NCBI GenBank assembly: GCA_037833965.1 | Contig: AP031358.1 | Location: forward strand, 7,758,001 to 7,822,000 | Length of the DNA stretch: 64,000 nucleotides | Reading direction: 5' to 3' | Source: Marchantia polymorpha subsp. ruderalis | Lineage: Eukaryota > Streptophyta > Marchantiopsida > Marchantiales > Marchantiaceae | Part shown: piece after piece, positions 24,667-52,387 of the stretch | Position numbering within the stretch: the first letter of the stretch is position 1 | How the letters are laid out: each line of letters begins with the position of its first letter | Position numbers and translations under genes: made by a program | The notes under the pieces: model-generated | Seen by the model: the letters and a program-made list of their open reading frames with translations, nothing else | Database searches by the model: none | What the model was told of the DNA's origin: nothing

Positions 24667-25038
24667 TGTGGGGCATACTTTTTTGTTTTTCTTTAAAACT
24701 TAACAAAAACATAAACATATTTGTGTAGAAGATAGTTATATGAGTTGGAAAGAGTAGATTTATAGGAGTTATGATAGGATTAGTTAGAATTTGTCCACGT
24801 CCGAAGATCTTTGGGTCTGCGGCGTAGTCTTTCAAGGACGTACGAAGAGCTGCGTTTTCGGCGAAGACATCGGAACCAATTTCAAATCATGCAACGGGCC
24901 GGACGATGTTCGCACGCGTTGGGAGTTCTACGAGGCGCGGGAGAGGCAATGTTAGAGCTTCAAGGGTAAAGGCAGTACGAGGAGACTTCGCGCTGACTTT
25001 GCGATATCAAGCAAGAACGAGCGAGAGAGAGAGAGGAA

Positions 25039-25713
25039 TTGCAATCGAGCCAACTCACGATTAGCGAAACGCAAATTGAAGACATGACGCCCAAGAAGAG
25101 TGAGAAGGTGAGGATGTTGGTTCCCTTGAAGGTGCCTTACGAGGAATTGAGACCTTTCAGACACGAGCTGAGAGAACTGCGGCTTGAATTCCTTTTGTGG
25201 AATTGGAATTGCGTCTCAACGAGTATCTGCAAGGAAATTATGGACAAGAGCGCGACCGAAGGCGAGGAGCTCTGCGGTAATCCCATGCTGTGGACCATCG
25301 AGCATTGGACAAAAGTAATGGAACCGTGTGCGGGCAGCGAAGGAGACCTGCTATTTGAGAAAAATAGCGTAGGACTTACGCGCAGCGAGGAATTCTCTTA
25401 CGGGACTCTCTTTGAGACTGGAAGACAGGGAACGAATGGATGGAAGATTGTAGATTACAAAGATCCGAAGAGAAGGGCAATCGCGTTGGGGATCATGCAC
25501 ATCTTACGGCCGACGCGCACGACTTATGTGACGGCCTGGCAAGTAGGGTTCTTCGAATGCATTTTGAAGGGACGGCGCGTACATTGGGCAAGGATCTTTT
25601 ACGATCTTGTCTGGGTGAATGCGTCTGGTCGATGGACGGTATCTATGACCAATCATCTTACTCCCTTTCTGGTGAATTTCTATCGAGGGATGGGATTGCT
25701 TACGAGGGAGTAG
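25039..25713 (+). pseudogene. LTR-borne protein of A-old, N-terminal part
   Basis: A 224-residue frame homologous to the first ~225 residues of the 857-residue protein in the A-young LTR. Shared blocks include FLLWxWN, CAGxEGDLLFExxSV, an ExSYxxLF segment, DYKDxxRR, ILxPTxTxYxxxWQV, VHWAR and NHLxPxLxxFYRxMGxLT. Rough identity by eye is about 40%, so the two are different subfamilies. It belongs to a fossil element and is separated from its C-terminal counterpart by the A-young insertion. Confidence 0.75.
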
Positions 25714-25992
25714 AAGAGACGATTTCCGAGAGAGCGGAAGTTCCTGACGGCTGAGTCCAATGAAGGGACTGAAGACGAGACCCGACTTCCCTCAATTCCA
25801 ACACACACCACCGCTCGAGGACCAGTGTAGGTGGACGTGGTTCACAGGCAGGAGCAGTCAGAGAGACGAGTGGCAAAGAGAAGGAAGGTCGTGAGTGATG
25901 ACGAGGAGGAATTGGCCCACGTGGTAAGAAGGATGGATATGGATGTAAGTGGAGCCAAGCAGCATAAAGCTCGCGCAAGACCAAAGAAGAGG

Positions 25993-25997
25993 GCGAA
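25993..25997. repeat. Target-site duplication GCGAA (left)
   Basis: Five bases directly left of A-young, identical to 41,526-41,530 on its right side. Confidence 0.95.
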
Positions 25998-28900: not shown

Positions 28901-30866
28901 CGTCAAACATCCCATCGCCCGGTAAAACACGATTAAGTAAGGCGATAGATGATTGAGCGTTCCTCCCCTCTCTTCTTGCGCATGTTGGCGCGTCACCTTC
29001 CACAGGAGCCGTGCCCAATGCACCGGAGCTCCTGACAACACTAGCTCCACGAACTCTACCTGCCAACCATGCATGTAGGCGGTCTTGGTCGGCTGCAATA
29101 TCTGCAGCAATGCTGTCGCGACATTTCTCCGCAATCGATCCTTGTAATCCCGAGTCCGGAAACCGTTCTTGGGATGTCTAGCCACCTTGAAGAGCTCATT
29201 GTAAGAGACTTCTTCCTCCTGGGACACTTTCACGCTGTCGGCCTCGAAGAGGAGATCCCCTTCCTCGCCGGCACACCTGCCCAACACCTGCGCCCAATTG
29301 CAAATTTCCCATCTCTCTGGGTGTGGGCGAAATCCGCGAGAAGGCTTGTGTCTCTCTTGCAGATACTCGCGCACCATCTCCGGACACGTCCAATTCCACC
29401 CCCAGAGGAGAAAATCGAGCTTCAGCCTCGTCAGCACATCTTGAAATGCGCGTAGACCGATCTGCGGCACCCTGAGTGGAGACACTCGCAGTTGGGGAAC
29501 CTTCGACATTGCGTTGCCTGCACACACAAACGTTCTCCCTTTCGCTCACTCTCTCACAATCGCCACTGCGCGTCGGCCACTCAAGCACTGACTGCTCACT
29601 CTCTCTGCGCTCGTTCAAGATCGCTACTCCCAATTCTTTCAAGGTCCGCCAAGATCCTTGTGCAACTCGTCTCCGCACTCTCTACTCTCACTGCAGGTCG
29701 CTCCGCCCTTGCGCGTAATCTTGGAACTGGAAATTGCAAAGTCAAGAATGAGAGAATGAGACTGGAGCGCAGTCTTTTCTTCTCCGATTTCAAGAACGTC
29801 CAACGTTCTTACTGGTTGCAACGTACGCAGCCGGCTATACGGCTTAACGGTTCGCCCTTTGCATGCGCGAATTCACGTCTCCGCATTGCGCGCATTCGCA
29901 TGCTTAAACGTTGAATTCTCCCGCCGCCGCCACCTTCCGGACTCGAGTCCGCTGCAGGGTATACGTCGGCCCTGTTGTCTTTTCCTAACCCGCCCTTCTC
30001 CGGAGGCGTGTCGCCGCTGGTGCGTTCATTATCCGTCGGCGCCTTGCTGGAGGCGCACATCCAGCCGGAGCGAATTACGCCGGCGCGCAGTCGTACCGCC
30101 TATTTTGTCCTTTATGCCTCGTCCGTTGCTGCCAGCGCATCCGGCCGTCAGCGCAACTCATGCCAGCGCATCCGGCCGTCAGCGCCACGTCGGAGGCGTA
30201 CATCTGACCGGCGCTTTCCTTCCATGAACAGCCGCCAAGGGCGCTTCCGACTCTGAGTTGGTTTCCTCCTGTGAGCGCGTGATTCCGCCGAAGGCGCATC
30301 GCCGAGGGCGTACGGGAATCCTTTCCGGCTGTGAACCCTAGCGCGAACGGCGCATGTCCGGCTACGAGTTTTCCGACGCTCATAACTTCTCCATTCCTGA
30401 TCCATCTCCGGCGCTCTTGGACTCGTTAGAACGAGCGTCCCGAGCTCTTTCTAATGCAACTTCAACCAACTGGATCTACCGTGTATCCCGATTGTTATGA
30501 AGGTTTTCCCTTTCCGCGCTAGCGGCGCTTCGCCGAAGGCGCACTCATGGTCGGATGCCTTTAGAGGTCCGGGCCCTTCTCCTGACGTCTTTAGCAAAAC
30601 CTCCTCCTGAGGTGTCTGCGCCGGAAGCGTAGCTTCCTTATACGCTAGAGGCGCGTGAGTAGAGACACCTCAAAAATGAGTCTTTGCCGAAGGCGCCGAA
30701 GACGTTGGCGTTGGTACATCCGACTACGTGATTCTTGGTGCCCTCGTGACGATCTCATCAATCCACTCTATTTAGCGTACCCTTCTCTAGCTACAAACAC
30801 TGCTTTGGTACTAGTTTTCTAAAATTGTTTAAATTCTGCAAAAAAAACAAAAAGTGTGTTACCACA
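25998..30866 (-). repeat. A-young 3' LTR (4,869 bp)
   Basis: Read on the minus strand it begins TGTGGTAACAC and ends GGGTTATTACA. It carries the same 857-residue sense frame as the 5' LTR. Near the LTR's own 3' end there are CA-repeat and CTCGGAGG-type short repeats (about 26.15-26.30 kb). Confidence 0.95.
26954..29527 (-). CDS. LTR-borne protein, 857 aa (3' LTR copy)
   Basis: Sense-strand frame lying wholly inside the 3' LTR. Function unknown. Residues about 10-225 form a conserved Trp-rich block (FLLWGWNW, CAGEEGDLLFEADSV, HGWQVEFVELVLSG, VHWARLLW, NHLSPYLIVFYRAMG). About 230-560 is a long Ser/Thr/Arg/Pro-rich, probably disordered linker with repeated TASRTTE-like units. About 565-590 is acidic. 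About 592-640 is a second conserved block (QIVPLLRYLDRKTSKYG). About 645-830 is Glu/Gln/Arg-rich, probably coiled coil, ending in RLGLRSR. It differs from the 5' LTR copy at only two residues near the middle of the coiled coil. The N-terminal block recalls, weakly, the plant transposon-protein domains found in Athila-type elements; I cannot confirm that without a profile search. Confidence 0.8.
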   Translation of the reverse strand: MCAGNAMSKVPQLRVSPLRVPQIGLRAFQDVLTRLKLDFLLWGWNWTCPEMVREYLQERHKPSRGFRPHPERWEICNWAQVLGRCAGEEGDLLFEADSVKVSQEEEVSYNELFKVARHPKNGFRTRDYKDRLRRNVATALLQILQPTKTAYMHGWQVEFVELVLSGAPVHWARLLWKVTRQHAQEERGGTLNHLSPYLIVFYRAMGCLTNAEKTRFPQLSRSYPGRYSREAEVDTDPDEEPASTPPAPAPARAAEERRSERIPRKRKWDERPEDRQPEVPAAPTRGRPTPEPHSRPKQRARRMPTVTEETRRTPTRRNLTQEEIIAQVLGKTAETSAQKAPRPSGGDGRTDDRPTASRMTEGRQAEGRPSERRVEPDSRPEAEESLADEPTILRGSSSAEGTSGRTPPTSRPSGVKTRRVYPTPSRTTAGRPTASRTTESQPDSPTARRMGPTTSVRTPSADAPSARTPSAQMAPEGQATEAGGARVTKVTAASTPSQTEDRAGTGAQAVGSPTALDILAGSGAAVAAEAAARHSSRESPRDSVATEILETEDETSSEEQEEDSVQKTPTGVLCEQIVPLLRYLDRKTSKYGSALKPQSYVETIRRRTRIKVAKWASSCQVYVERNTALRQHLAVTQKLYQALQQQKEDAATKSQAEAELIRAKIESELQEERRQNKVLAAELARQTRAIEESQRARKEDEELLCNLQTECSDLRAQRADLEMQLAEVESSCRARGELAARVTRCLNGYTHWEVAAQERITLREFELRAAALTEGDSRSRRRVARKLETFLSGARDTMAHLQSEVTAALRRLGLRSRSEDWQGRDSKRSSPARRRRSTGSAECSRVVWFRADTASGR

Positions 30867-30880
30867 TGCCCCCCTCCTCA
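30867..30880 (-). other. Polypurine tract of A-young
   Basis: On the minus strand TGAGGAGGGGGGCA lies directly before the 3' LTR, the expected place for plus-strand priming in reverse transcription. Confidence 0.85.
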
Positions 30881-30903
30881 ATTGTGAGCGCCCACGCGAA
30901 CAT

Positions 30904-33645
30904 TTACACGTGGTATTTCTTCAGACGCCATCCGTTCACGCGGGTGCCTAACCATTCTCCCGTGAGTTCTGCGAGTTGGATGGATCCATTTGGGAAAACT
31001 TCTATCACCTTGTAAGGTCCCATCCACCTCAAGTGGAGCTTGCCTGGAAATCTAGCATGTCTGCTATCGTATAGCAGAGCCAAGTCGCCCTTCTCCAGCA
31101 GTACTGGTTTGAGCCTTCGATCGTACTTCTCCTTCCGCCTGAGTTGTAATTGCTTTGTCCGATCTTCGGCCTCTTGACGTCTTTCCTCCAGTGCCATTAC
31201 CTCTTGCAGTCGATATGCCTGACTTTCTTCCGCGTCCAGCCTTCTCTGATCTAAGGTCCTCTTGGTAGGTATCTCGAATTCGATGGGTAAGATCGGATGC
31301 TGCCCATAAACTAGGAAGTAAGGTGTTTGCCTGGTGGTGACTTTTTCTGCCGTTCTATATGCCCATAAGGCGGCCGGTAGCTTGGTGTCCCAGTCATGAG
31401 CATGGTTTACAGTTACCTTGAGGAGTATCTTACAGAGTAATCCATTGGACTTCTCTGTCAGACCATTTGCCTTGGGGTTGTATGGAGTAGTCTTCCGATG
31501 CTTAATCTGGAAGTGCCGCGTCAAACTTTCTATCACCTGATTCAGAAAGTGCGTTCCTCTGTCACTGACTATTTCTAGGGGGCACCCGTAGCGTGTGATG
31601 ATGGATTCGAATAGGAACCGTGCTACTGCGGCTGCGTCGTCGTGCCTTGTGGCTTCTGCCTCCACCATCTTGGTCGCATAGTCTGTTGCTACCAATATGT
31701 AGCGCCTGCGCGTGCCTTTAGTGACAGGTTGTATTGGTCCCACGAAGTCGATCCCCCATTTTTCAAATGGTGCCAATGGCATGATTGGTGTAAGAGGCCA
31801 TCTCGTGGTCGGAGTCGGCCTTCCCGTCCTCTGGCAGCTGTCGCATTTGCGAACGTAGTCGTGTACATCTTTGAACATCGTCGGCCACCAGTATCCTGCA
31901 TTCACAATTTTGGTCACTGTATTTCTGGTGGCGTAGTGACCACCAGCGTCTTCTGTGTGCATGGCTTTGACAACTCGCGGTACTTCAGACTCCTCTAGAC
32001 ATCTGCACAACCTCTCGTCTGCCATTTTCTTGAACAAGACCCCCTGTTGAAGCTGGTAAGGTCCCGCTTTATGAACGAAGACTGTGCGCTGCTCTGCATC
32101 CAATCCTTCCGGACATTGGAGTGTGAGCAGGAACCTGTATAAGTCCGCGTACCTGGACTCATGGCTGGCGGACAACTGAAAAAGTTGTTCGTCGGGAAAA
32201 TCATCCACTACTTCCTCCTCTATGGGTTCGGTCCATAGTCGGGAGAGGTAGTCCGCGTTCTCATGGTGAACGCCTTTCCGTGTCTGTACAGTATAGGTGA
32301 ATTCCTGTAGCAGTAGCACCCACCTGGCAATTCGTCCGGACAGATCCGCCTTCTTCACCAGGTGCTGTAAGGCGTAATGATCTACATGAAACACGAACTC
32401 ATAGCAGATCAAATAATGTCGGAACTTCTTGCAGGAGTACACCATTCCCAACGCCTCCCTCTTAGTTGTCGTGTATTTCTTCTCTGCTGCTGACAACTGA
32501 CGACTCGCGAAGTAAATCGGGTAGTCTTTCTTGTTGTCGTCCTTCTGACTGAGAACCACTCCGATTGCAAACGCCGACGTGTCTACATAGACATGGAAAG
32601 GTCTGTTCCAATCCGGACTTCTCAGAACCGGAGCAGTCGTCAGTTTGGCTTTGAGCGTTTCAAAGGCCAGCTGTTGCTCCTTGCCCCACACATAGGGTTC
32701 ATCCTTCTTAAGCAGCTTCGTCAGATCGGCTGCCAAGATGGCATACATATTTATGAACCTTCTGTAATAACCTACATGACCAAGGAAGGCCCTCAACTCA
32801 CGCAGATTCGTTGGCGGCTGCAGTTCGAGAATAATCTTCACCTTCTCTACATCCACTGCAATGCCATCGGACGAAACTCGGTGCCCTAGCAGGATTCCGC
32901 TGGTCATGAAGAAAAAACATTTCTCAGGGTGTAAGGACAAGCTGCTTTCCCTACACCTGTCGAACGTTTGCCGAAGATGGTTAAGGTGCTCCGACCTCTT
33001 ACCGAAGACACAAAAGTCGTCGATGAAAATTTCTAGGAACTTCCTCAGGTGCTCTTGGAAGATGTTTGTCATCATCCGCTGGAACGTCGCTGGCGCGTTG
33101 CACAGACCGAACGGCATCTTGTGATAAGCATAGGTCCCCCAGTCGGTCGTGAAGGTTGTTTTGTCCTTGTCCTGTTCCCTGATGGACACCTGGTTGTAGC
33201 CGGAGAATCCGTCTAGGAAACTGTAGCATTCATGCCCTGCTACATGGTCCAGAATAGAGTCCGTGAAAGGAAGAGGGTGATGGTCCTTCCGCGTTGCTGC
33301 GTTCAGCTTCCTGAAGTCCTGACACACCCGGATCTTACCCGTCAGTTTCTTGGGCACGATCACGATAGGCGACACCCACTCGCTACTAAGTACCGGGTAG
33401 ATGATTCCTGCGCTCAGGTACTTATCGATTTCGTCCTTCACCAATAGTGAATATTTTGGGTTGAGCCTGTATTGGCGTTGGCGAACCGGAACTGCCTCGT
33501 CCAACAAGTCGATCCTGTGTTCTCCATACCTTGCAGGTATGCCTTTCATGTCTTCAATCTTCCATGCGAAGACATCCTCATACTGGCGAAGAAACGCCTG
33601 TACCCTGTTCAACTCTTCTCCTTGTACCTGGCTTGACACCTTCAA
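30904..33645 (-). CDS. pol: A-young pol: reverse transcriptase, RNase H, integrase
   Basis: Polyprotein of 913 residues that copies the element's RNA into DNA and inserts it. RT covers about residues 45-240, with WVSPIVIVPKK, FLDGFSGYNQV and the active site FIDDF, a variant of the usual YxDD. RNase H follows (VYVDTSAFAIGVVLSQ, TTTKREALGMVYSCKKFRHYL, HHENADYLSRL). Integrase comes last, with an HHCC zinc part (CDSCQRTGRP) and a catalytic core with WGIDFVGP and VSDRGTHF. The C-terminal tail has GPYKVIEVFPNGSIQL but no chromodomain. It lies downstream of gag-protease in the same frame; see the boundary entry. It looks intact. Confidence 0.93.
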   Translation of the reverse strand: MKVSSQVQGEELNRVQAFLRQYEDVFAWKIEDMKGIPARYGEHRIDLLDEAVPVRQRQYRLNPKYSLLVKDEIDKYLSAGIIYPVLSSEWVSPIVIVPKKLTGKIRVCQDFRKLNAATRKDHHPLPFTDSILDHVAGHECYSFLDGFSGYNQVSIREQDKDKTTFTTDWGTYAYHKMPFGLCNAPATFQRMMTNIFQEHLRKFLEIFIDDFCVFGKRSEHLNHLRQTFDRCRESSLSLHPEKCFFFMTSGILLGHRVSSDGIAVDVEKVKIILELQPPTNLRELRAFLGHVGYYRRFINMYAILAADLTKLLKKDEPYVWGKEQQLAFETLKAKLTTAPVLRSPDWNRPFHVYVDTSAFAIGVVLSQKDDNKKDYPIYFASRQLSAAEKKYTTTKREALGMVYSCKKFRHYLICYEFVFHVDHYALQHLVKKADLSGRIARWVLLLQEFTYTVQTRKGVHHENADYLSRLWTEPIEEEVVDDFPDEQLFQLSASHESRYADLYRFLLTLQCPEGLDAEQRTVFVHKAGPYQLQQGVLFKKMADERLCRCLEESEVPRVVKAMHTEDAGGHYATRNTVTKIVNAGYWWPTMFKDVHDYVRKCDSCQRTGRPTPTTRWPLTPIMPLAPFEKWGIDFVGPIQPVTKGTRRRYILVATDYATKMVEAEATRHDDAAAVARFLFESIITRYGCPLEIVSDRGTHFLNQVIESLTRHFQIKHRKTTPYNPKANGLTEKSNGLLCKILLKVTVNHAHDWDTKLPAALWAYRTAEKVTTRQTPYFLVYGQHPILPIEFEIPTKRTLDQRRLDAEESQAYRLQEVMALEERRQEAEDRTKQLQLRRKEKYDRRLKPVLLEKGDLALLYDSRHARFPGKLHLRWMGPYKVIEVFPNGSIQLAELTGEWLGTRVNGWRLKKYHV

Positions 33646-33760
33646 GCCTTTACCTGGACTGAGCTGCAGTTCGCAGCAATCACTCGGGTCAACAATCCCC
33701 TCTGTGTGACTGATCTCGCTTCTGCCCAGTCCGGCTGCTAGTTGCTATTCCTCATCCGGA
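33646..33760 (-). promoter_or_regulatory. gag-pol read-through boundary of A-young
   Basis: The gag-protease and pol frames are in the same register and meet at an amber codon whose downstream context fits the tobamovirus-type read-through consensus (UAG-CAR-YYA). Suppression at the gag-pol border is a known strategy of gammaretroviruses and has been reported for some plant LTR elements. It would keep pol scarce relative to gag. No experimental support is available here. Confidence 0.55.
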
Positions 33761-36573
33761 TACACCTCGTCTCCTTCCTCCTCAATGGAGCAGCAAGTGA
33801 CGTAGCCCACAAAGTCCTCTGACGTTTCGGTCTCTGAAGTGCATGATGAGCTGGTCTCCCCTCCGGTTGTGTAACCGGAGGTGGTGGAAGGTGTTTCGCC
33901 CTCATGGGGTACCTTGGTCCACGGTACGGTAATGACAGTCGGAGGGTCCGCAGGGCTACGGAACTGTAATCTCTTCCTACTCCAGTCACACCTTGCTTTG
34001 GCATCGTATAGCCACGGTCGGCCAAGCAGCACATCATAACCTTTCTTCATCAGAGGTTGCAGTATTATGTAGGACAGTTGAAAGTCCACTCCTCCAATGT
34101 TGGTTCTCACATTGCTCAACATTCCTAGTGGCATTCTGCGTGTTTGATCGGCCAGTCGCAATACTCGGGATGTAGGCTCGAAGGTCTGGAACCCCAAGGA
34201 GTTCGCTGTCTCCTCGGTCATGATATTCACGCCCGAGCCGGAGTCCACTGGTACCTTCTGAATGACGCAGCCTCCGATCTCTACTTCGATCTCTGGAGGT
34301 CCCAGGTCTCCTCCTTCCACTCTGTACACAGCCGGAAGTTTCTCTTTTCGGGGTTTGCGTGGTCGGCGCAACGAAAGCATCAGCATCCTCCTGTACGTCT
34401 TATTGTCTTCCAACAACTGGTGGAAGGAAATATTTGCCCTCTGGCTCCCCATGTCTTTCACTATGTCGTAGGGAGTGTTGGAAGTCACAGCCGGAAGTTT
34501 CCCTGTACTCGCGGTCGGAAGGGGTGTAGGGGGCCTAACCTCCTTCCGGTCGTCGGATGTCATTCCGGCGCCCAGTGCTTCCTTGATGAGGTGACTCACC
34601 TCATCTTTGATGTCCGGAAGGTAATCTCGAGTCCGGAACTCTTCTGAATACCTGTCCGCCTTTTCTGAGTTCTGCTCCGGCTGGGTGTTTCTCATAGCCG
34701 GAGGTGTACCCGGCCTTCTCCTCGGGCCTTCTCTAACTTCTTTAGACTTCCTCCTCTCTTCCCTACGCTCGAGGCGGCGAGTGTCCTCGTGGCCTTCTCC
34801 TTTCCTCTTCGAACTTCGGGTTTCTACCCGACCGCACATTACTTCTTCCTCTGGCCATACTTCGTCTCCTTCAGCTGGGTCCAGGCTCAGTTCTACCTGG
34901 TTGACTTGCACTTCTTCCTTGCCAGGTGTTGATACGAAACGCACGGCTGGCCTAGGGATTTGGGGCTGGTCACATTCAGCTGCTGTATGTCCGGACTTCT
35001 TGCAATTGCTGCACAATGGTGCATACCCCATTGGCCTCCTCGGGTGGGGACAACTTGGCGCGTAATGCCCCATGTCTCCGCAGTTGTTGCAACCATCGAA
35101 TTGTGGTCGAGGTCGGTTGTGATTGCCTGGAGGTGCCATGCGTCTTGGTGGGAGTGTACCCGCCATTTCCCTCGGAACAAAGCGCGGTATATGCACCGGT
35201 GGGTTCGGAGTTGTAGCTGGAGCTGTCTGTACCGAGTAGGCGGTGTCCTCAACCTGCTCAGCATAATACATAGGCGGCTCAGCATAATACATGGGGTTCT
35301 CCCACTGTGGTGCCCATTCGACCGCATTCACTGGGTAAGATGGCCTCGCGGACATGCACTCCGTGTTGGCATGTCCCACCTGTCCGCACGTAGTACACCA
35401 GAGATTCGCTCGTTGTCTTGCAGGTGATTTACGTCGGTCTTGGCCTCCCACTACATGAACTTTCAGGTCCGCAAAATTCTTCACCAGGTTGTCTACCTTG
35501 GCTGCGATGTCCCCTTGAGTCTTCACTGGGATTCCCTTGCCTCGATCCTTCTTCTTGATCGCACTGCGTTTCTTCTTCCGTCTTTCTTCTTCTGAAGATG
35601 ACGAGTCCTCTTCCTCTTCCGAGGAAGAACTTGATTCGGAGGAGCTTGATTCTTCTGTCGAGGAAGGCGAGTTCCTTCTCTTCCGACGTCCGCCTTGCGA
35701 CTTCTTCTTCGTCGACCGTCGGTCGCGTCTTCGAGTGTCAAGGGTTGACGTCTCAAAGGTCTCCGCGGAAGCTATCACATCTTGGATTGTGTCAGTCTTG
35801 CCTCTCCTACAGAAGGTCTCCATTTCTCTTGAGAGCCCTGTCACATACCAATCCACTGCCTGTTGTACCGAATACGGTTCTCCCGGGCCTGTCTTCGGAA
35901 TTCGATCTAGGAGGTCTTGGAATCTCTCAGTGTAGTCTCGAAGATTCTCCTTCCGCTCGCGTCGAAGATTTCGAAGCCGGGTCAGAACTCGACTGTCATA
36001 TCCGAGTTCGCGGAACCGCCTCAGAAATTTTTCCTTGAGCTGAGCCCAGGTCCGGATGCCAGTGGGGTCGGTGCTCTCATGGTTGTACCAGCTACGCGCT
36101 CGTTTGCGTAGCAGGCTAGGAAAGATTCGTAATCTGTCTTCATCACTGGTCTCACGATTGGCGATGGAGACAGACTCGAAGAGCTTTATGTATGAATCTG
36201 CATCATCGTCGTCGCCCGTTCCCGTGTATCTTGGATACGAATGTTTGGTGGTAGGTTGGGAAAACACCGGGCGGAGATTGGCTTGATGTTCTGCCATCGG
36301 TGATCCTGTCGACGGACTGATCCTAGGTTGGCCAAACTCAGGAAGAGTTCCTGTCGGAGGGATGTCCAATAGAACTGTTAGCTCAATGCTCTCGGTAGGT
36401 GAACTGGAACGCCTTTGTCTTCCAGTAGTCGGTGATGGCGACCTTTCTGCAGAGTCCTCACCGGGAGTCTTCTTTTTAGTTCGCCGTTTTGTTTCCACGG
36501 CTTTTTCTGAATCTCGACGGAGTTTCCGTGTGGCTCTCGCACTCAGGTTTCCCACACTATCGCTCGTCGACAT
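33745..36573 (-). CDS. gag: A-young gag-protease, 942 aa
   Basis: Structural protein of the virus-like particle followed by an aspartic protease. Residues 1-90 are basic and disordered. About 110-265 is the plant Gypsy gag core (HSYPRYTGTGDD, RARSWYNHES, LKEKFLRRFRELGYD, ERKENLRDYTERFQDLLDRI). About 295-345 is a Ser/Glu-rich stretch, then a basic patch. Three CCHC zinc knuckles follow: CTTCGQVGHANTEC, CNNCGDMGHYAPSC and CSNCKKSGHTAAEC. The protease near residue 775 has the active site VPVDSGSGVNIM. The start codon is only about 84 nt after the 5' LTR. It looks intact. Confidence 0.92.
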   Translation of the reverse strand: MSTSDSVGNLSARATRKLRRDSEKAVETKRRTKKKTPGEDSAERSPSPTTGRQRRSSSPTESIELTVLLDIPPTGTLPEFGQPRISPSTGSPMAEHQANLRPVFSQPTTKHSYPRYTGTGDDDDADSYIKLFESVSIANRETSDEDRLRIFPSLLRKRARSWYNHESTDPTGIRTWAQLKEKFLRRFRELGYDSRVLTRLRNLRRERKENLRDYTERFQDLLDRIPKTGPGEPYSVQQAVDWYVTGLSREMETFCRRGKTDTIQDVIASAETFETSTLDTRRRDRRSTKKKSQGGRRKRRNSPSSTEESSSSESSSSSEEEEDSSSSEEERRKKKRSAIKKKDRGKGIPVKTQGDIAAKVDNLVKNFADLKVHVVGGQDRRKSPARQRANLWCTTCGQVGHANTECMSARPSYPVNAVEWAPQWENPMYYAEPPMYYAEQVEDTAYSVQTAPATTPNPPVHIPRFVPREMAGTLPPRRMAPPGNHNRPRPQFDGCNNCGDMGHYAPSCPHPRRPMGYAPLCSNCKKSGHTAAECDQPQIPRPAVRFVSTPGKEEVQVNQVELSLDPAEGDEVWPEEEVMCGRVETRSSKRKGEGHEDTRRLERREERRKSKEVREGPRRRPGTPPAMRNTQPEQNSEKADRYSEEFRTRDYLPDIKDEVSHLIKEALGAGMTSDDRKEVRPPTPLPTASTGKLPAVTSNTPYDIVKDMGSQRANISFHQLLEDNKTYRRMLMLSLRRPRKPRKEKLPAVYRVEGGDLGPPEIEVEIGGCVIQKVPVDSGSGVNIMTEETANSLGFQTFEPTSRVLRLADQTRRMPLGMLSNVRTNIGGVDFQLSYIILQPLMKKGYDVLLGRPWLYDAKARCDWSRKRLQFRSPADPPTVITVPWTKVPHEGETPSTTSGYTTGGETSSSCTSETETSEDFVGYVTCCSIEEEGDEVYPDEE

Positions 36574-36616
36574 TCACCGAGCATTGCTGCTCAAGGTTTC
36601 TGGTGTTGACGCACTG

Positions 36617-36634
36617 TCCCCGGCAGCGGCGCCA
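36617..36634 (-). other. Primer-binding site of A-young (tRNA-Asp type)
   Basis: On the minus strand TGGCGCCGCTGCCGGGGA, 22 nt after the 5' LTR. It complements the 3' end of plant tRNA-Asp as I recall it, with one mismatch, as in Athila-type elements. Confidence 0.75.
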
Positions 36635-36656
36635 AAAAGAAGTTGTCGGCTCCTTA

Positions 36657-39600
36657 TGTAATAACCCACCAAAGGCTAAAACTGCAGTATGGTGGTAAAA
36701 AGATCGAACCCACAGGGACAGAGGCAACACACAGAGTAAAAGTGTCACATTTAACAGACTTTTGGTAGAGTTTGAATTCTAGGCGACTGTCACTCCCAGA
36801 AATACTGCAGTGCTCGACTCGGAGGCTCGACTCGGAGGAGGATCTCAACTCGGAGGATGCTCGGAGGATGCACGGTACAGCTTGGTCACTCAACACACAC
36901 ACACACACCTGAAACTGGCAAAAAGCACAACTCGGAGGTCGGTCAGGACCTCCGCTTCGGATTTCAGGAGGAAAGTGTCTCGCAAGTTCACTCAGAGGTT
37001 CTGCAGGAAGTGCCTCCCACTCCGGCTTTTACTGCCCTTCCGCCAGGAACTAGCGGGGGTACCCGGACTGGACTTCTCACTTCGGAACGAAGCCTCTACG
37101 TACGCCGTGGACGTCACCCTCGACTATCACACAAAACGCAGGGAGTGCAGACCCGACTGAGAACTTACTGAAAACACGATCCAGTAACACACACACAACC
37201 TGAATTACAAACCAAGGTTTACACGAAGTAATGAAACTTCACATTGGCATTCAGGGGAAACTTCCCGTAGGAGTACAATCAGGATATGTCACTCGAAGGA
37301 GTAAGGGGGAACTGTTCAAGTATCTAACTCGCAGCCGGCTCTGAGTATCAGAAATCACCCGCAGGTGCAGATCCGCACTACTCAAGTCTCTAACCGGGTA
37401 CTAGCTCTGAACATTCAGCCGAAGGCCTTCAACTACAACATACGGTAACTTCGCTATGCTGCAGCTTCTCTACGTGGTGCCAGGACCAAAATGCACAAAC
37501 ACGCCAAGAAAGTGAGTTCCTGATCTGCACTTCCGAAACTGGAAGAGTCCCAAGGCAAAACGCCTTGATCTACTTTATACTCTCAAAAGATCCTAACTAG
37601 CACTACGCTATCCTATCTACCACTCGCAGTATCTGCGCGAAACCAAACTACTCTACTGCACTCAGCAGATCCGGTGCTGCGCCTCCTGCGCGCCGGACTG
37701 CTCCGCTTACTGTCTCTACCTTGCCAGTCTTCCGACCGGCTGCGTAACCCCAGGCGTCGGAGCGCTGCAGTGACTTCCGACTGCAAGTGCGCCATAGTGT
37801 CGCGCGCACCCGACAAGAAAGTTTCTAATTTTCTTGCCACTCGCCGCCGACTCCGACTGTCACCTTCCGTCAAGGCCGCCGCCCGAAGCTCGAACTCCCT
37901 GAGTGTGATCCTCTCTTGAGCTGCCACCTCCCAATGGGTGTATCCGTTTAGACAACGAGTCACCCGTGCCGCCAACTCTCCTCGTGCCCTGCAGCTGCTC
38001 TCCACCTCTGCCAGCTGCATTTCTAAATCCGCACGTTGTGCCCTCAAATCCGAGCACTCGGTTTGCAAGTTGCACAACAACTCCTCATCCTCCTTGCGGG
38101 CTCTTTGACTTTCCTCTAAGGTGCGCGTCTGGCGCGCAAGCTCGGCTGCTAGGACTTTGTTCTGTCTCCGCTCCTCCTGCAGTTCCGACTCGATCTTTGC
38201 CCGTATTAGTTCGGCCTCCGCCTGACTCTTCGTCGCCGCATCCTCCTTCTGCTGCTGCAAGGCTTGGTACAGCTTCTGGGTGACCGCCAGGTGTTGTCTG
38301 AGGGCGGTGTTCCTTTCCACATATACTTGGCAACTAGAGGCCCACTTTGCCACCTTGATCCTCGTCCTTCGCCTGATAGTCTCCACATAAGACTGCGGTT
38401 TTAAGGCACTTCCGTATTTGGATGTCTTGCGATCCAGATATCGCAGGAGTGGAACTATCTGTTCGCACAGCACCCCTGTTGGCGTTTTCTGCACCGAATC
38501 CTCTTCTTGCTCTTCCGAGCTCGTCTCATCCTCAGTCTCGAGGATCTCAGTCGCCACCGAATCCCTTGGCGACTCCCTGGAACTGTGGCGCGCAGCAGCT
38601 TCCGCTGCGACTGCTGCTCCACTGCCTGCTAAAATATCCAGGGCAGTGGGAGATCCCACTGCTTGAGCCCCTGTTCCGGCTCGATCTTCGGTTTGTGAAG
38701 GGGTCGACGCCGCAGTGACTTTTGTCACTCTTGCACCGCCCGCTTCTGTTGCCTGTCCTTCCGGCGCCATCTGCGCGGAAGGTGTCCTTGCTGAAGGTGC
38801 GTCCGCCGAAGGCGTCCGCACACTGGTCGTTGGCCCCATCCGTCTCGCAGTCGGCGAATCCGGCTGACTCTCTGTTGTCCGACTCGCAGTCGGCCGACCA
38901 GCAGTTGTCCGACTGGGAGTCGGATACACCCTGCGCGTCTTGACTCCACTTGGCCTGCTTGTTGGTGGCGTTCTTCCAGAAGTGCCTTCCGCCGAAGACG
39001 ACCCTCTGAGGATTGTTGGCTCGTCAGCCAAACTCTCTTCTGCTTCCGGCCTGCTGTCTGGTTCAACGCGCCGTTCACTTGGCCTTCCTTCCGCTTGTCG
39101 ACCTTCAGTCATCCGACTCGCAGTCGGACGATCGTCAGTCCGTCCATCTCCTCCCGAAGGCCGTGGTGCCTTCTGTGCAGAGGTTTCTGCCGTCTTCCCT
39201 AGGACCTGAGCAATTATCTCTTCCTGTGTGAGATTCCGCCGGGTCGGAGTTCGCCTGGTCTCCTCAGTAACAGTTGGCATTCTGCGTGCCCTCTGTTTTG
39301 GTCGACTATGAGGCTCGGGGGTGGGCCGACCACGAGTCGGCGCAGCTGGTACTTCCGGCTGCCTGTCCTCAGGTCTCTCATCCCACTTCCGCTTGCGCGG
39401 AATGCGCTCACTTCGACGTTCTTCTGCTGCTCTGGCTGGAGCCGGAGCCGGAGGCGTACTGGCAGGTTCCTCGTCCGGATCCGTGTCTACTTCGGCCTCC
39501 CTCGAATATCTACCTGGATAAGACCGGCTCAGCTGCGGAAACCGAGTTTTCTCAGCATTCGTCAAACATCCCATCGCCCGGTAAAACACGATTAAGTAAG

Positions 39601-41525
39601 GCGATAGATGATTGAGCGTTCCTCCCCTCTCTTCTTGCGCATGTTGGCGCGTCACCTTCCACAGGAGCCGTGCCCAATGCACCGGAGCTCCTGACAACAC
39701 TAGCTCCACGAACTCTACCTGCCAACCATGCATGTAGGCGGTCTTGGTCGGCTGCAATATCTGCAGCAATGCTGTCGCGACATTTCTCCGCAATCGATCC
39801 TTGTAATCCCGAGTCCGGAAACCGTTCTTGGGATGTCTAGCCACCTTGAAGAGCTCATTGTAAGAGACTTCTTCCTCCTGGGACACTTTCACGCTGTCGG
39901 CCTCGAAGAGGAGATCCCCTTCCTCGCCGGCACACCTGCCCAACACCTGCGCCCAATTGCAAATTTCCCATCTCTCTGGGTGTGGGCGAAATCCGCGAGA
40001 AGGCTTGTGTCTCTCTTGCAGATACTCGCGCACCATCTCCGGACACGTCCAATTCCACCCCCAGAGGAGAAAATCGAGCTTCAGCCTCGTCAGCACATCT
40101 TGAAATGCGCGTAGACCGATCTGCGGCACCCTGAGTGGAGACACTCGCAGTTGGGGAACCTTCGACATTGCGTTGCCTGCACACACAAACGTTCTCCCTT
40201 TCGCTCACTCTCTCACAATCGCCACTGCGCGTCGGCCACTCAAGCACTGACTGCTCACTCTCTCTGCGCTCGTTCAAGATCGCTACTCCCAATTCTTTCA
40301 AGGTCCGCCAAGATCCTTGTGCAACTCGTCTCCGCACTCTCTACTCTCACTGCAGGTCGCTCCGCCCTTGCGCGTAATCTTGGAACTGGAAATTGCAAAG
40401 TCAAGAATGAGAGAATGAGACTGGAGCGCAGTCTTTTCTTCTCCGATTTCAAGAACGTCCAACGTTCTTACTGGTTGCAACGTACGCAGCCGGCTATACG
40501 GCTTAACGGTTCGCCCTTTGCATGCGCGAATTCACGTCTCCGCATTGCGCGCATTCGCATGCTTAAACGTTGAATTCTCCCGCCGCCGCCACCTTCCGGA
40601 CTCGAGTCCGCTGCAGGGTATACGTCGGCCCTGTTGTCTTTTCCTAACCCGCCCTTCTCCGGAGGCGTGTCGCCGCTGGTGCGTTCATTATCCGTCGGCG
40701 CCTTGCTGGAGGCGCACATCCAGCCGGAGCGAATTACGCCGGCGCGCAGTCGTACCGCCTATTTTGTCCTTTATGCCTCGTCCGTTGCTGCCAGCGCATC
40801 CGGCCGTCAGCGCAACTCATGCCAGCGCATCCGGCCGTCAGCGCCACGTCGGAGGCGTACATCTGACCGGCGCTTTCCTTCCATGAACAGCCGCCAAGGG
40901 CGCTTCCGACTCTGAGTTGGTTTCCTCCTGTGAGCGCGTGATTCCGCCGAAGGCGCATCGCCGAGGGCGTACGGGAATCCTTTCCGGCTGTGAACCCTAG
41001 CGCGAACGGCGCATGTCCGGCTACGAGTTTTCCGACGCTCATAACTTCTCCATTCCTGATCCATCTCCGGCGCTCTTGGACTCGTTAGAACGAGCGTCCC
41101 GAGCTCTTTCTAATGCAACTTCAACCAACTGGATCTACCGTGTATCCCGATTGTTATGAAGGTTTTCCCTTTCCGCGCTAGCGGCGCTTCGCCGAAGGCG
41201 CACTCATGGTCGGATGCCTTTAGAGGTCCGGGCCCTTCTCCTGACGTCTTTAGCAAAACCTCCTCCTGAGGTGTCTGCGCCGGAAGCGTAGCTTCCTTAT
41301 ACGCTAGAGGCGCGTGAGTAGAGACACCTCAAAAATGAGTCTTTGCCGAAGGCGCCGAAGACGTTGGCGTTGGTACATCCGACTACGTGATTCTTGGTGC
41401 CCTCGTGACGATCTCATCAATCCACTCTATTTAGCGTACCCTTCTCTAGCTACAAACACTGCTTTGGTACTAGTTTTCTAAAATTGTTTAAATTCTGCAA
41501 AAAAAACAAAAAGTGTGTTACCACA
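36657..41525 (-). repeat. A-young 5' LTR (4,869 bp)
   Basis: Near-identical to 25,998-30,866 (about three substitutions seen, no length change). It must contain the element's promoter; I did not fix a TATA box or transcript start. Confidence 0.95.
37613..40186 (-). CDS. LTR-borne protein, 857 aa (5' LTR copy)
   Basis: Same protein as at 26,954-29,527 apart from two residues. Its position matters: the frame lies between the LTR start and the gag gene on the sense strand, so a transcript starting in the first ~1.3 kb of the 5' LTR would carry this frame ahead of gag-pol. The alternative is expression from the 3' LTR, as the sag gene of mouse mammary tumour virus is. Neither can be decided from sequence alone. 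A diverged homologue in A-old argues that the frame is maintained. Confidence 0.8.
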   Translation of the reverse strand: MCAGNAMSKVPQLRVSPLRVPQIGLRAFQDVLTRLKLDFLLWGWNWTCPEMVREYLQERHKPSRGFRPHPERWEICNWAQVLGRCAGEEGDLLFEADSVKVSQEEEVSYNELFKVARHPKNGFRTRDYKDRLRRNVATALLQILQPTKTAYMHGWQVEFVELVLSGAPVHWARLLWKVTRQHAQEERGGTLNHLSPYLIVFYRAMGCLTNAEKTRFPQLSRSYPGRYSREAEVDTDPDEEPASTPPAPAPARAAEERRSERIPRKRKWDERPEDRQPEVPAAPTRGRPTPEPHSRPKQRARRMPTVTEETRRTPTRRNLTQEEIIAQVLGKTAETSAQKAPRPSGGDGRTDDRPTASRMTEGRQAEGRPSERRVEPDSRPEAEESLADEPTILRGSSSAEGTSGRTPPTSRPSGVKTRRVYPTPSRTTAGRPTASRTTESQPDSPTARRMGPTTSVRTPSADAPSARTPSAQMAPEGQATEAGGARVTKVTAASTPSQTEDRAGTGAQAVGSPTALDILAGSGAAVAAEAAARHSSRESPRDSVATEILETEDETSSEEQEEDSVQKTPTGVLCEQIVPLLRYLDRKTSKYGSALKPQSYVETIRRRTRIKVAKWASSCQVYVERNTALRQHLAVTQKLYQALQQQKEDAATKSQAEAELIRAKIESELQEERRQNKVLAAELARQTRTLEESQRARKEDEELLCNLQTECSDLRAQRADLEMQLAEVESSCRARGELAARVTRCLNGYTHWEVAAQERITLREFELRAAALTEGDSRSRRRVARKLETFLSGARDTMAHLQSEVTAALRRLGLRSRSEDWQGRDSKRSSPARRRRSTGSAECSRVVWFRADTASGR

Positions 41526-41530
41526 GCGAA
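41526..41530. repeat. Target-site duplication GCGAA (right)
   Basis: Identical to 25,993-25,997. Together they show a simple integration of A-young into the A-old LTR. Confidence 0.95.
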
Positions 41531-43128
41531 ACGGAGGATGGTGACAGTTGAGGTGTCAGACAGCAGTGTGGAGAAGACGGTGGCTTCAATTGTAAACACA
41601 TCCGAAGTCACAGCTAGCGAGGTAATGCGACCTGTGGAGATAGGAGTACCTTCGGAGGTGTCAATCGAAGTTCCGGCAGAACCTTTGAAGGAGGGAACGG
41701 AATTGGTAAGTCCGATTTCTCTGTCTTCGGAGCGGACACCGTCTGTGCAAGGCGAAGAGACACCACACATGAAGATGAACGAGGACTTGGAGAAGGAGTT
41801 TACTTTGAGCGAAGAGATTCTGGAACAGGTTGTCGCAAGGGTAGGAGGTACGGTGGTAGAAGCCGAGGTCATTACACTGCTGACATCTCCGGTGGAAGAG
41901 GTGAGATCCGAACAAGGAGAGAAGACTTCGGGTCAAGATGTGAAGACAATAGAAATTACATTTCTTGAATTCTTGCAGGATAGTGTAGTTCCATTGTTGA
42001 AGTACTTGGACGGGAAGAGAGGAAAGTATGCTGTAACGGAGGAGCCAAGATTTTATGTACCTATGATTAGGAATAGGACGAAGCTCAAGAGAGCAGTTGC
42101 AGTAAAGAGGGAGTGGGAGTCCGCAACTGCACTGGTGCGAGAGCGAGAAGCCCAGCTTCAGGAGAAGGAAACTAAGTGCAAAGTACTGCAGCAGAACTTA
42201 GAGAAGGAATCCGGACGCTGTGAAGAGTTGGAGGAGGCCTGTAGAGGACTTCGTATCTCCAATGAGAATGTCCAGAAAGTAACAATGGATTTGGTAGCGA
42301 GACTGAGAAATCCAGGGAAGCTTACAGGGTGGCAAGCAAAAGATCGGAGTGGCTAATCATTACAGCGGAGAAGCGAGAGAAGATGCACATCGAGGAACTT
42401 GCCAAGTTGGAAGCCCGAAGAGCCGAAGAAGCTCATATCGCCGAAGAACTTCGGGGCAAGCTCGCAGATACGAAGACGGCGGAGGAAGATCTTCGTAGGA
42501 AAATCTCGAAGATTGAAGCGAAGTATGAGATGGAATTTTGACGTGCGGAGGAGGTATTAGCAAGTCTGTCGGCGGGAAACCAGAAGCATGAGGAAGAATT
42601 GAAGTATTGGGCCAAGAAATTAGCAAATTGCGAGTCGGCCAAGACTTCGGAGGTCGAATGTAGATTAAAGGGTGAGACTGATTGTCGACGGTTACAGGAG
42701 CAGTTAGGGAAGGCGGAAATGAGATCGGAAGAGTCGCAAAGGAGAATGCAAAAGGCAGAGGATGCCTTCCGTCAGCTGCGGGAGGATTCAACCGACATGT
42801 TGAGATTGCGGTTAGAGAAGTGTTTGAACGGGTTCACGATGTGGGGATTGGATTCAGTGAAGTGGATAAAGCTAGATCTGCTCGAGCGACGGCTGATGAG
42901 CACGAAGACCAGCGGATCCGCAGGCACAAACAGATTGTAGAGTTAGTTAATTCATTTTCAGAGGAATTGAATGAGGCGCGCCAAAATGTAGAGGTAGAGA
43001 TTGTAAATGTGTTGCGTAGATTAGGAGTAAAGAGTAGTTCAGACGATGCTGTAACCGTTACATCAAACGGCAAAGTCCCTGAGGCCGATTCGTCTCAGAC
43101 GATTGATATCCCATATTTGACATTGTGA
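41531..43128 (+). pseudogene. LTR-borne protein of A-old, C-terminal part
   Basis: Plus-strand remains homologous to the C-terminal half of the 857-residue A-young protein: a Ser/Glu-rich linker, then VVPLLKYLDGKRGKY followed by a NRTKLKRAV segment (A-young: IVPLLRYLDRKTSKYG, then RRTRIKVAK), a long Glu/Arg-rich coiled-coil region, KCLNGFTMW-like and RRLGVKSSSD at the end (A-young: RCLNGYTHW, RRLGLRSRSE). It belongs to a fossil element and is damaged in a few places. Confidence 0.72.
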
Positions 43129-43665
43129 ATAAAGAGGTCCAAGGCTCTTTCCTTGGGGGGCTTTTTTGTCTATTGACTTGTCTCAACTGTCATTCTGTCT
43201 TCGCTGTGTGTCTATGTGCTGGTGTGTGATCCAGGCATTGAGCACAGGGCGCTCCTAGTTGTTGAAATTACCGCATCGTGAGTTGTGAGTATTCAGCTTG
43301 GATGTCTTGGGTAGCCTGGGGTTACTGCGGGATTTAAGCAAGTTCAGGTAAGAGTATTTGGATCAGTGTGTTGAGATGTATGCAGTGCTGGGAAGTTTTC
43401 CCCCTGAAATATAAGTGTGGGATCGCTTGTGATTCTCACAGGTTTTGATTGGAAAAGGTCCAGGTTGTGAATACGGTTTTGCACTACCCTGTGAGTCTTC
43501 GGCTCTAGCTGAGTAGTGTCTTCTAGGAGTAGCATTGGCCTAAGAAGTAAAACTTCGCTATAGACTGCTATCTTGTGACAAATCGTGACTTTTGTGTTTG
43601 TTTTTGTCCTCGTGGGAACAGATCTGTACCATTATGCTCTATTTTGGTATTTATCTGTCATTACA
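43129..43665 (+). repeat. Terminal part of A-old 5' LTR, non-coding
   Basis: No coding potential. It includes the tail GTCCTCGTGGGAAC...CATTACA typical of the 3' end of Athila/Tat-type LTRs, and an AATAAAG signal-like motif near 43,130 with a GGGGGGC stretch after it. Confidence 0.6.
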
Positions 43666-43683: not shown

Positions 43684-43701
43684 TGGCGGCACTGCCGGGG
43701 A
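43684..43701 (+). other. Primer-binding site of A-old
   Basis: TGGCGGCACTGCCGGGGA, 18 nt after the LTR end. It aligns with the A-young site with two differences, so the family has kept a tRNA-Asp-type primer. Confidence 0.7.
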
Positions 43702-43746: not shown

Positions 43747-45487
43747 ATGTCGACGAGAGATGATTTCAAGAAGGTAAGCGATCGATCTGCGCGATATCTC
43801 TGTCGAGAAGAAAAGAAGGAAGATCCCGAAGATCCACAAGAACGGGATCAAAGGAAAGGAAAGGGGAAAGGGAAGAGATCAATTCCCCTTCTGCCTGTGA
43901 TTGCACCCCCGCAAACGAGGCGACCTGCGAATTCCCCATCTACGCACGAAGCCTACGTCCGGGAGATGTTGGCATCAATTCTGATCGATGCACGCCTCTT
44001 ATCCCTTGATGAGTTGACGGCTGTAGAAGATCCAAGTTCACCTCGGTTGTACTCTTCACCACTCTTCGGCATACCGGGTGACGCCAGAATCTTCCATACG
44101 CTGTTGGATTTACCGATCGAAGACACGGCTCGAGTGCAGACTGTGATGCATAACTACGAAGATCTTTTTACTAACGCGTCGACATCACGTGTTCGGCCTA
44201 CGACCTTACTAAGGGATTTGAATTTTGTAAGATCTTCCGGAGGCACTTCAAGAGGTGGAAGCAGTGGTGGCGAATCCCCATCTCCACCAGGCTCGCCGAG
44301 AGGAGGACCACCCTTTCCACCAAACCCACCAGGCGGCGGAGGAGGCGGAGGCGGGGGTCCACCAGATCGACCGATGGAAGATCAGCAAGGAAATCGTCAT
44401 CTCTTTACTAAACACTCATACCCCAAATATAAGGGTAGAGGAGATGACGATGCAGATGCCTACATCAAATTATTCGAGTCGGTCTCCATCACCAATAAGG
44501 AAGACAATGAAGCGGATAGATTGCGCATATTCCCCAACGTGCTCTGGAAGAAAGCCCGAAGTTGGTACAACCACGAGAGCACGATTCCCACGGGAATTGA
44601 TACGTGGGCTAAACTCCGAGAGAAGTTCTTGAAGTAGTTCCGGGAACTGGGATATGATAGTTGAGTGTTAACGAAGTTGCGAAACCTGCACAGGGAGCGC
44701 AAGGAGAACCTGAGAGACTATACCGAGAGATTTCAAGATCTCTTGGATCGCATCCCGAAAACCGGAGGAGTGCCTTATTCCACTGAACAAGCCATCGATG
44801 GGTATGTAACGGGCTTGCCAATGGAAATAGAGACCTACTGCCGACGCTGTAGGTGTGATACTATTGACGAGATGATTACCTCCGCCGAGGCCTTTGAGAC
44901 ATCTACCCAAAACAAGCGTCCAAAAGGCCGGGTACAAGACGAGCGATAATCTAAAAGCAGTCGGCGGAAGAGACGGGCTGCTTCATCTTCGTCCTGTGAG
45001 TCTTCTGCATCCTCAGAGTCGAGCGAATCAGAAGACTCATCCTCTTCTGAGGACGAGAGGAAGCCGAAGAAAGAAAGTAAGAAGAAGAACCGGTGGATGG
45101 CCGCCGCCGAGAAAGGCACCACCTCTATAGTATCTAAGGTGGATGCCTTAGTAAAGGACTTTGCTACCTTAAAGGTTCATGTTGTAGGGAGCCGAGATAA
45201 GAGGAAGTCCCTCATAGGGGCAAGGCTCAACCTCTAGTGTACGAATTGTGGCAAAGTAAGCCACGCGAACGTCGAATGCCGGACATACCTAGTCAATGCA
45301 GTGGTGTGGGTACCCGCATGAGAAGCGGGGGGATATTACACAGAGGCCCACGAAGAAGCTGCCTATGCCGTACAGGAAGGGCCTCCGACAACACCCATCC
45401 AGCCCGCCCATATAACGCGTTTTGTGCCCAAGGAGGTGGCTACTACGGTGCCACAACAAAGATTGGCACCGCCTATTGTAGCTGGAC
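43747..45487 (+). pseudogene. A-old gag remnants (left of B insertion)
   Basis: Gag-core homology to A-young (FTKHSYPKYKGRGDDDADAY, ARSWYNHES, ERKENLRDYTERFQDLLDRI), preceded by a Gly/Pro-rich segment not found in A-young and followed by a Ser/Glu-rich and Lys-rich part and the first zinc-knuckle region. Fossil, with several breaks. Interrupted at 45,488 by element B. Confidence 0.8.
45484..45487. repeat. Target-site duplication GGAC (left of B)
   Basis: Four bases before the B element, repeated at 53,171-53,174. Four rather than the usual five for Gypsy. Confidence 0.75.
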
Positions 45488-46258: not shown

Positions 46259-46262
46259 TTTT

Positions 46263-46280
46263 TGGTTCCGTTGCTGGGAC
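46263..46280 (+). other. Primer-binding site of B
   Basis: TGGTTCCGTTGCTGGGAC, 4 nt after the LTR. It begins TGG as expected for the CCA end of a tRNA. I do not recognise the exact tRNA. Confidence 0.55.
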
Positions 46281-52376: not shown

Positions 52377-52387
52377 TGAAATCTTGG

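What the first reader, a model, noticed from the sequence alone, without database searches (positions are those of the whole stretch)
36657..41525. Giant LTR carrying a long sense-strand protein gene
Each 4,869-bp LTR of A-young contains an intact 857-residue frame in the sense direction, with two conserved blocks, a disordered linker and a coiled coil. The LTRs make up 63% of the element. LTRs normally hold only control sequence; the best-known LTR gene is sag of mouse mammary tumour virus. A plant Gypsy element that duplicates an accessory gene in both LTRs is, as far as I know, unusual.
Basis: partly seen in the sequence, partly recalled or inferred. Interest (0 to 1): 0.88.

Follow-up and report, generated by a model that had tools for sequence, protein, structure and literature searches.

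The report
Protein gene inside retrotransposon terminal repeats
A very common jumping element of a liverwort carries, inside both of its long end repeats, a gene for an 851-residue protein that natural selection has kept intact, whereas such repeats usually hold only control signals.

Summary
The element (window 25998-41525, minus strand, 15,528 bp) has two 4,869-bp LTRs with 3 mismatches, TG...CA ends, a 5-bp target duplication, PBS and PPT. Each LTR holds one sense frame: 857 codons from a GTG, 851 from the ATG that relatives share; shuffled LTRs never exceed 347. By protein matches the host is Marchantia polymorpha. Genome-wide pattern counts: 1,347 ORF starts, 1,260 LTR/PBS junctions. Of 20 copies picked by non-coding LTR DNA, 14 keep the full frame; pairwise pN/pS in 16 is 0.29, and 0.065 in the N-terminal domain; pol gives 0.027, the other sense frames 1.2-1.4. 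So this is a selected accessory gene carried in both LTRs and left intact in solo LTRs (4 of 4). An older family has it just inside its left terminus (27 of 30 copies). No Pfam, PDB or fold match. Function (nuclear helper, promoter inside the LTR) is inferred; there is no RNA evidence. My searches found no plant LTR-located gene; MMTV sag is the nearest analogue, from memory. New variant of a known kind.

The parts
36657..41525 (-). 5' LTR of the young element, 4,869 bp
   Evidence: PBS follows it
25998..30866 (-). 3' LTR of the young element, 4,869 bp, 3 mismatches to the 5' LTR, all inside the ORF
   Evidence: PPT precedes it
37613..40168 (-). LTR gene in the 5' LTR, 851 aa from ATG (857 from the GTG at 40186)
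26954..29509 (-). the same gene in the 3' LTR, also open
39527..40168 (-). conserved N-terminal domain (to residue 220 of the 857-codon count), the most constrained part
38567..39526 (-). variable basic, Pro/Ser/Thr-rich linker with PRKRKW patch
   Evidence: patch seen by eye
37616..38566 (-). C part: conserved LRYLDRK block, coiled-coil-like stretch, basic tail
40169..40519 (-). ATG-free stretch before the ORF's ATG (LTR 1007-1357): candidate leader
37551..37579 (-). TATAAAG plus hairpin just after the ORF: candidate poly(A) or TATA signal
36617..36634 (-). primer binding site, 22 nt after the LTR (tRNA-Asp type by recall)
33745..36573 (-). gag-protease ORF, 942 aa, ends in TAG
30904..33744 (-). 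RT-RNase H-integrase, open in the same frame after the TAG
30867..30879 (-). polypurine tract GAGGAGGGGGGCA
41526..41530 (-). target site duplication TTCGC
25993..25997 (-). target site duplication TTCGC, other side
24667..25997 (+). A-old LTR, left piece (starts TGTGGGG), holding the N part of its gene at 24997-25713
41526..43665 (+). A-old LTR, right piece (ends TTACA), holding the C part of its gene, 41526-42356 and a weaker piece to about 42892
43684..43701 (+). A-old primer binding site
43747..45474 (+). A-old gag, broken; continues at 53198-53470 beyond an inserted element

Best explanation
A high-copy Ty3/Gypsy retrotransposon of Marchantia, without chromodomain, whose LTRs each carry a complete accessory gene (851 aa: conserved N-terminal domain, basic linker, C block with coiled-coil-like part). 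SHOWN: the gene lies inside the LTR, is in both LTRs and in solo LTRs, is kept by selection on its protein, and lies in the same place in a second, older family. INFERRED: it is transcribed from a promoter inside the LTR upstream of the ORF, with an end signal just after the ORF, so that each LTR is close to a self-contained gene; the protein is a nuclear helper of the element's own cycle (transcription, release from silencing, or RNA handling). Being in the LTR doubles the gene per element and leaves a working gene behind when an element shrinks to a solo LTR. I hold the shown part at about 0.95, the LTR-internal promoter at about 0.55 and the nuclear helper role at about 0.5; the single figure below is for the whole reading.
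For: Anatomy. Of the 20 best-scoring copies, 8 have a PBS downstream (one of them, L020, also a PPT upstream: the middle LTR of an array), 8 have a PPT upstream (L007 by my reading of its variant PPT and shared TSD), 4 are solo LTRs with 5-bp TSDs and open frames. 38 neighbouring ORF starts lie 10,595-10,672 bp apart among the 100 places listed of 1,347. Selection: pN/pS 0.288 in 16 copies, N part 0.065; other sense frames 1.41 and 1.23, pol 0.027; context-matched null: 78 non-synonymous of 179 distinct changes against 120.6 expected, 0 of 2000 runs as low. Second family. Promoter inside the LTR: 19 ATGs in LTR 1-1003, then none up to the gene's own ATG at 1358 (5.4 expected, P 0.004); ATAAAG plus hairpin after the ORF in 3 of 3 sequences that cover that place. 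Nuclear: PRKRKW-like patch kept in relatives, by eye.
Against: No RNA or protein evidence. The ATG-free leader is not mirrored in A-old-type LTRs (mean 5.1 ATGs before the matched stretch against 7.3 expected). No localisation program was run. The structure model is poor (mean pLDDT 50). Constraint is about nine times weaker than in pol of the same elements (0.247 against 0.027), so the gene may help without being essential. The antisense frame that shares the ORF's third positions also gives a low ratio, 0.34, as expected from the overlap. The automatic gene model P0080 joins integrase to the LTR gene, which fits the sag-like rival better.
Confidence: 0.6

Rival explanations
1. Sag-like layout: the ORF is in U3. 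The promoter lies after the ORF (TATAAAG at LTR 3947), genomic RNA starts there, and the protein is made from the 3' LTR copy, perhaps by splicing.
For: TATAAAG just after the ORF; a splice-acceptor-like TTTGTGTGTGCAG just before the ORF, seen by eye; gene model P0080 joins integrase to the LTR gene.
Against: At the same place A-old and L081 have AATAAAG, a poor TATA box; the ATG-free stretch before the ORF suggests a leader; gene model P0010 joins the LTR gene to gag, the 5' LTR order.
Confidence: 0.25
2. The LTR gene is the first exon of a longer Gag: transcripts start before the ORF in the 5' LTR and splice into gag, so the protein is mainly a Gag extension.
For: Gene model P0010 (619 aa) joins an 86%-identical C part of the LTR protein to gag; the gene lies upstream of gag in sense in both families.
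Against: The ORF has its own stop codon in 14 of 20 DNA-picked copies at the same place, and solo LTRs keep it open without gag. One automatic, partial model only.
Confidence: 0.08
3. Captured host gene riding along (transduction), of no use to the element.
For: Extra genes in plant elements can arise by capture (PMC7264820, read in part).
Against: No named homologue outside Marchantia element-like proteins in three capped searches; present in at least two diverged families; purifying selection among copies.
Confidence: 0.03
4. Chance open frame in G+C-rich DNA.
For: The LTR is G+C-rich for this window (about 0.53-0.58).
Against: 863 against at most 347 stop-free codons in 500 shuffles; pN/pS 0.29 against 1.2-1.4 in the other sense frames.
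Confidence: 0.01
5. Not an LTR: a segmental direct duplication around gag-pol.
For: None beyond the large size of the repeat.
Against: TG...CA ends, TSD, PBS and PPT; solo LTRs with their own TSDs; many pairs 10.6 kb apart.
Confidence: 0.01

Closest known systems
Mouse mammary tumour virus sag (recalled; from no call)
   Same: A sense-strand protein gene wholly inside the LTR, hence present twice per element.
   Different: Unrelated host and element. The gene here is about 2.6 kb in a 4.9-kb LTR. No sequence comparison was made. Whether it lies in U3 here is unknown.
Extra ORFs (eORF/aORF) of plant Athila, Ogre, Retand and Tekay elements (PMC6317226 section 13 and passages; PMC7264820 parts 1-2; PMC11728184 passages)
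   Same: Conserved element-borne accessory protein; some of those described have long disordered regions, helices and predicted nuclear signals, function unknown.
   Different: Those described lie between the LTRs, upstream or downstream of gag-pol. This one lies in the LTRs and has no match to PF10536, PF04195 or PF03078.
VANC anti-silencing proteins of VANDAL DNA transposons (described in PMC12844716, passages)
   Same: A possible functional parallel: an accessory protein acting on the element's own non-coding DNA.
   Different: DNA transposons; no sequence relation tested; no convincing repeated motif found in this LTR.
Cer1 CERV protein (PMC10309623, title and start of abstract in the listing)
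   Same: Accessory protein of an LTR retrotransposon needed for nuclear export of genomic RNA.
   Different: Worm element; the comparison is of possible function only.

Membership tests
Ty3/Gypsy LTR retrotransposon | gag, protease, RT, RNase H, then integrase, between LTRs | tested here: met
   Pfam hits in this order; LTRs, PBS, PPT, 5-bp TSD
Chromovirus clade | chromodomain after integrase | tested here: not met
   no chromodomain among Pfam hits at E<=1
Tat clade (Ogre, Retand) | additional RNase H domain | tested here: not met
   one RNase H region only in the pol ORF, residues 320-449 by two overlapping models
Athila clade | place in an RT-RH-INT tree | not tested
   no reference set at hand
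Plant eORF/aORF | ORF of at least 250 codons outside the polyprotein | tested here: met
   851 aa
Plant eORF/aORF | lies in the internal region | tested here: not met
   lies in both LTRs
Eorf proteins with plant mobile domain, Transposase_28 or Athila ORF-1 domain | Pfam match PF10536, PF04195 or PF03078 | tested here: not met
   no family at E<=1 for the window protein; none of the three among 13 members at E<=5. A distant relation is not excluded
MMTV sag-like LTR gene | protein gene within the LTR | tested here: met
MMTV sag-like LTR gene | gene in U3, before the transcription start | not testable with these tools
   needs 5'-end reads
MMTV sag-like LTR gene | homology to the superantigen | not tested
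   not compared; no Pfam or PDB sequence match of any kind at E<=1

The most novel reading that the evidence does not exclude
In these liverwort elements the LTR itself is the gene: promoter, 851-aa accessory protein and end signal form one cassette. The protein acts in trans on LTR DNA or RNA to keep the family active, and solo LTRs persist as free-standing helper genes, so that losing the body of an element does not lose the helper.
Probability: 0.35. Interest if true: 0.9.

Novelty: new variant of a known kind. Interest (0 to 1): 0.8.

Why it matters
LTRs are taken to be control DNA, and surveys look for accessory genes between them. A selected gene inside the LTRs of a family with over a thousand LTR/PBS junctions shows that in a plant the LTR can be the seat of a protein gene. 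It changes what a solo LTR is: possibly a working gene, not only a relic. It also offers a tractable model plant in which the role of plant retrotransposon accessory proteins, open in the papers read here, can be tested.

Tried and rejected
Searches without result: Pfam and PDB sequence searches of the LTR protein (one search gave only weak one- or two-member hits, the best being SKG6 0.0016 and CENP-K 0.0018, apart from gag in the fused model P0010). AlphaFold2 of the N-terminal domain is poor (pLDDT 50), and its PDB fold search gave 15 matches at E<=10, the best 2.8. A search for VANC-like repeated sites in the LTR: CA repeats up to 7 copies and CCGAAGGC 6 copies, against a maximum of 6 in 100 shuffles; not convincing. 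The promoter and terminator scan is built for bacteria and served only to read off a hairpin.

First selection estimate: (pN/pS 0.18) used the 20 best copies by protein score, which favours few amino-acid changes, and five pairs among them are the two LTRs of one element. I replaced it with places found by non-coding LTR DNA (40 scored, capped). I judged by spacing that the 40 places fall into 23 groups and took 20. Of those 20, three were truncated or rearranged (L059, L062, L063) and one had indels (L057): these four were left out of the count. Two of the 16 counted (L060, L061) have a premature stop.

Mixed result: six A-old-type right ends were fetched. L080 shows LTR end and PBS. L076 and L081 reach an LTR end with no PBS, and their flanks do not match as a TSD. 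L077, L078 and L079 were interrupted or gave no full match. P0003-type copies (82 scored) were not tested for LTR position. Twelve pol stretches were asked for and only five obtained.

Literature: 10 of 10 searches used, open-licence PMC papers only. Seen: PMC7264820 (parts 1-2 of 3); PMC6317226 (section 13 and passages); passages only of PMC9985172, PMC11963269, PMC5408684, PMC12844716, PMC11728184, PMC13317346, PMC11117352, PMC8775202. Older or subscription work on LTR ORFs may be missed.
Full report
WHAT IS THERE. The window is C9:7758001-7822000 of a 241.5-Mb, nine-contig genome. All homologues that carry an organism name are Marchantia polymorpha proteins (6 of 47 and 11 of 81 rows in the last two carry no name), so the host is that liverwort or a very close relative. 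The young element runs on the minus strand: 5' LTR 36657-41525, internal part 30867-36656, 3' LTR 25998-30866. The LTRs are 4,869 bp and differ at 3 sites, all inside the ORF; BLAST gives 4,870 because one T after each LTR matches by chance. Ends are TG...CA, the target duplication is TTCGC, the PBS stands 22 nt after the LTR, and a purine tract abuts the 3' LTR. [quoted passage not shown]

THE LTR GENE. The sense frame in each LTR is 857 codons from a GTG, or 851 from the ATG at window 40168. Three related proteins start at the matching place. The longest stop-free frame in 500 shuffled LTRs is 347 codons, against 863 observed. The protein has a conserved first 220 residues, a variable linker with a basic PRKRKW patch, and a C part with a conserved LRYLDRK block, a coiled-coil-like stretch and a basic tail (by eye). 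No Pfam family at E<=1 and no PDB sequence at E<=1 matches it.

IT IS FAMILY-WIDE. A protein search of the genome scored 53 copies at 98-100% identity, a capped list; 48 of 53 have no stop. Pattern counts (up to 3 mismatches; reversed-pattern controls all 0) give 1,347 ORF starts, 1,260 LTR/PBS junctions, 961 PPT/LTR junctions and 1,198 LTR left ends. The patterns differ in tolerance, so these cannot be set against each other exactly, and an ORF start does not prove an open frame. Among the 100 ORF starts listed, 74 belong to pairs about 10.6 kb apart, the distance between the two LTRs of one element. Of the 20 best copies, 8 have a PBS downstream, 8 a PPT upstream and 4 are solo LTRs with their own 5-bp duplications; all four solo LTRs have the full open frame. 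LTR length could be measured in 18 of 20 and is 4,867-4,872 bp.

SELECTION. To avoid choosing copies by their protein I searched with 501 bases of LTR outside the ORF: 40 of 40 scored matches were 100% identical, a capped list of young copies. Of 20 ORF stretches taken, 14 have the full 857-codon frame, one has an 855-codon frame with indels, two have a premature stop and three are incomplete. In the 16 in-register copies pairwise pN/pS is 0.288: 0.065 for residues 1-220, 0.399 for 221-540, 0.332 for 541-857. Controls: the two other sense frames give 1.41 and 1.23; antisense frames give 0.99, 0.34 and 1.32, the 0.34 being the frame that shares the ORF's third positions; pol of five elements plus the window's gives 0.027, and the LTR gene of the same six 0.247. 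Placing the same 179 distinct changes at random in the same three-base context gives 120.6 non-synonymous on average against 78 seen, 0 of 2000 runs as low; for the N-terminal part 7 seen against 21.1. The protein is selected, strongly in its first domain, but less than pol.

A SECOND FAMILY. The young element sits inside an older, plus-strand relative (A-old) and splits that element's own copy of the gene: N part 24997-25713, C part 41526-42356. In A-old the gene is followed by an LTR end (TTACA), a PBS and a broken gag; its 3' LTR was not found in the window. In 27 of 30 A-old-type loci, homology between copies starts sharply at a TGT... terminus 310-360 bases before the matched stretch, with differing upstream flanks; the exceptions are L040, L048 and L049. 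L080, beside the copy L036, shows LTR end and PBS, and a gag match lies 0.7 kb further on. So in this family too the gene lies between the element's left terminus and its PBS. Two other right ends (L076, L081) have neither PBS nor a matching TSD. The A-old query matched 150 scored places, most with stops, and the P0003 query another 82, both capped. A codon model over the window gene and nine A-old-type copies without stops in this stretch gives omega 0.28, with a very long branch to the young gene, so it is a rough figure.

HOW IT MAY WORK. Two layouts remain. (a) A promoter before the ORF: LTR 1-1003 has 19 ATGs, then none until the gene's own ATG at 1358 (5.4 expected, P 0.004 by composition), and ATAAAG with a hairpin stands just after the ORF in the young element (TATAAAG), A-old and L081 (AATAAAG), the three sequences covering that place. 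Against it, A-old-type LTRs show only slightly fewer ATGs than expected before the matched stretch (5.1 against 7.3). (b) A sag-like U3 gene made from the 3' LTR copy. Two automatic gene models point opposite ways: P0010 joins the LTR gene to gag, P0080 joins integrase to the LTR gene. I favour (a), moderately. The function, a nuclear accessory protein serving the element, is inferred from build and analogy. RNA data would decide.

NOVELTY. The review and survey read in part place extra ORFs of plant LTR elements between the LTRs (PMC7264820; PMC6317226); the domains they name (PF10536, PF04195, PF03078) do not match here. Ten literature searches listed no paper that I recognised as describing a plant LTR-located gene. 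MMTV sag is the analogue, by recall. I rate it a new variant of a known kind.

Noticed in passing
window 33739-33747, minus strand; L071-L075: gag-protease ends in TAG CAA CTA and pol continues in the same frame: the UAG-CAR-YYA context known (by recall) for stop-codon readthrough. The same in 5 of 5 other copies.
   Followed up: partly
window 45488-53170, plus strand: A second young element: 771-bp LTRs with 3 mismatches and one 1,501-aa gag-pol frame, inserted in the gag of A-old.
   Followed up: partly
G000 C1 (5.59 Mb): 36 of the 150 A-old-type matches (capped list) lie on the smallest of the nine contigs, 2.3% of the genome; possibly a sex chromosome.
   Followed up: no
G000 C6:10772669-10815817; C9:5363403-5387291: Arrays of LTR-internal-LTR-internal units: five LTR matches 10,662 bp apart on C6, three ORF copies 10,659 bp apart on C9.
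   Followed up: no
G000 C1:4123284 and 4127318; C3:17733773-17740187: LTR starts 4.0 kb apart and PBS junctions 3.2 kb apart suggest short derivative elements with the same termini.
   Followed up: no
L036, left flank: The A-old-type LTR start abuts what looks like another LTR end of the same family: adjacent or nested copies.
   Followed up: no
window 62555-63943, plus strand: A protein-kinase-like open frame near the window end, recognised by eye only.
   Followed up: no
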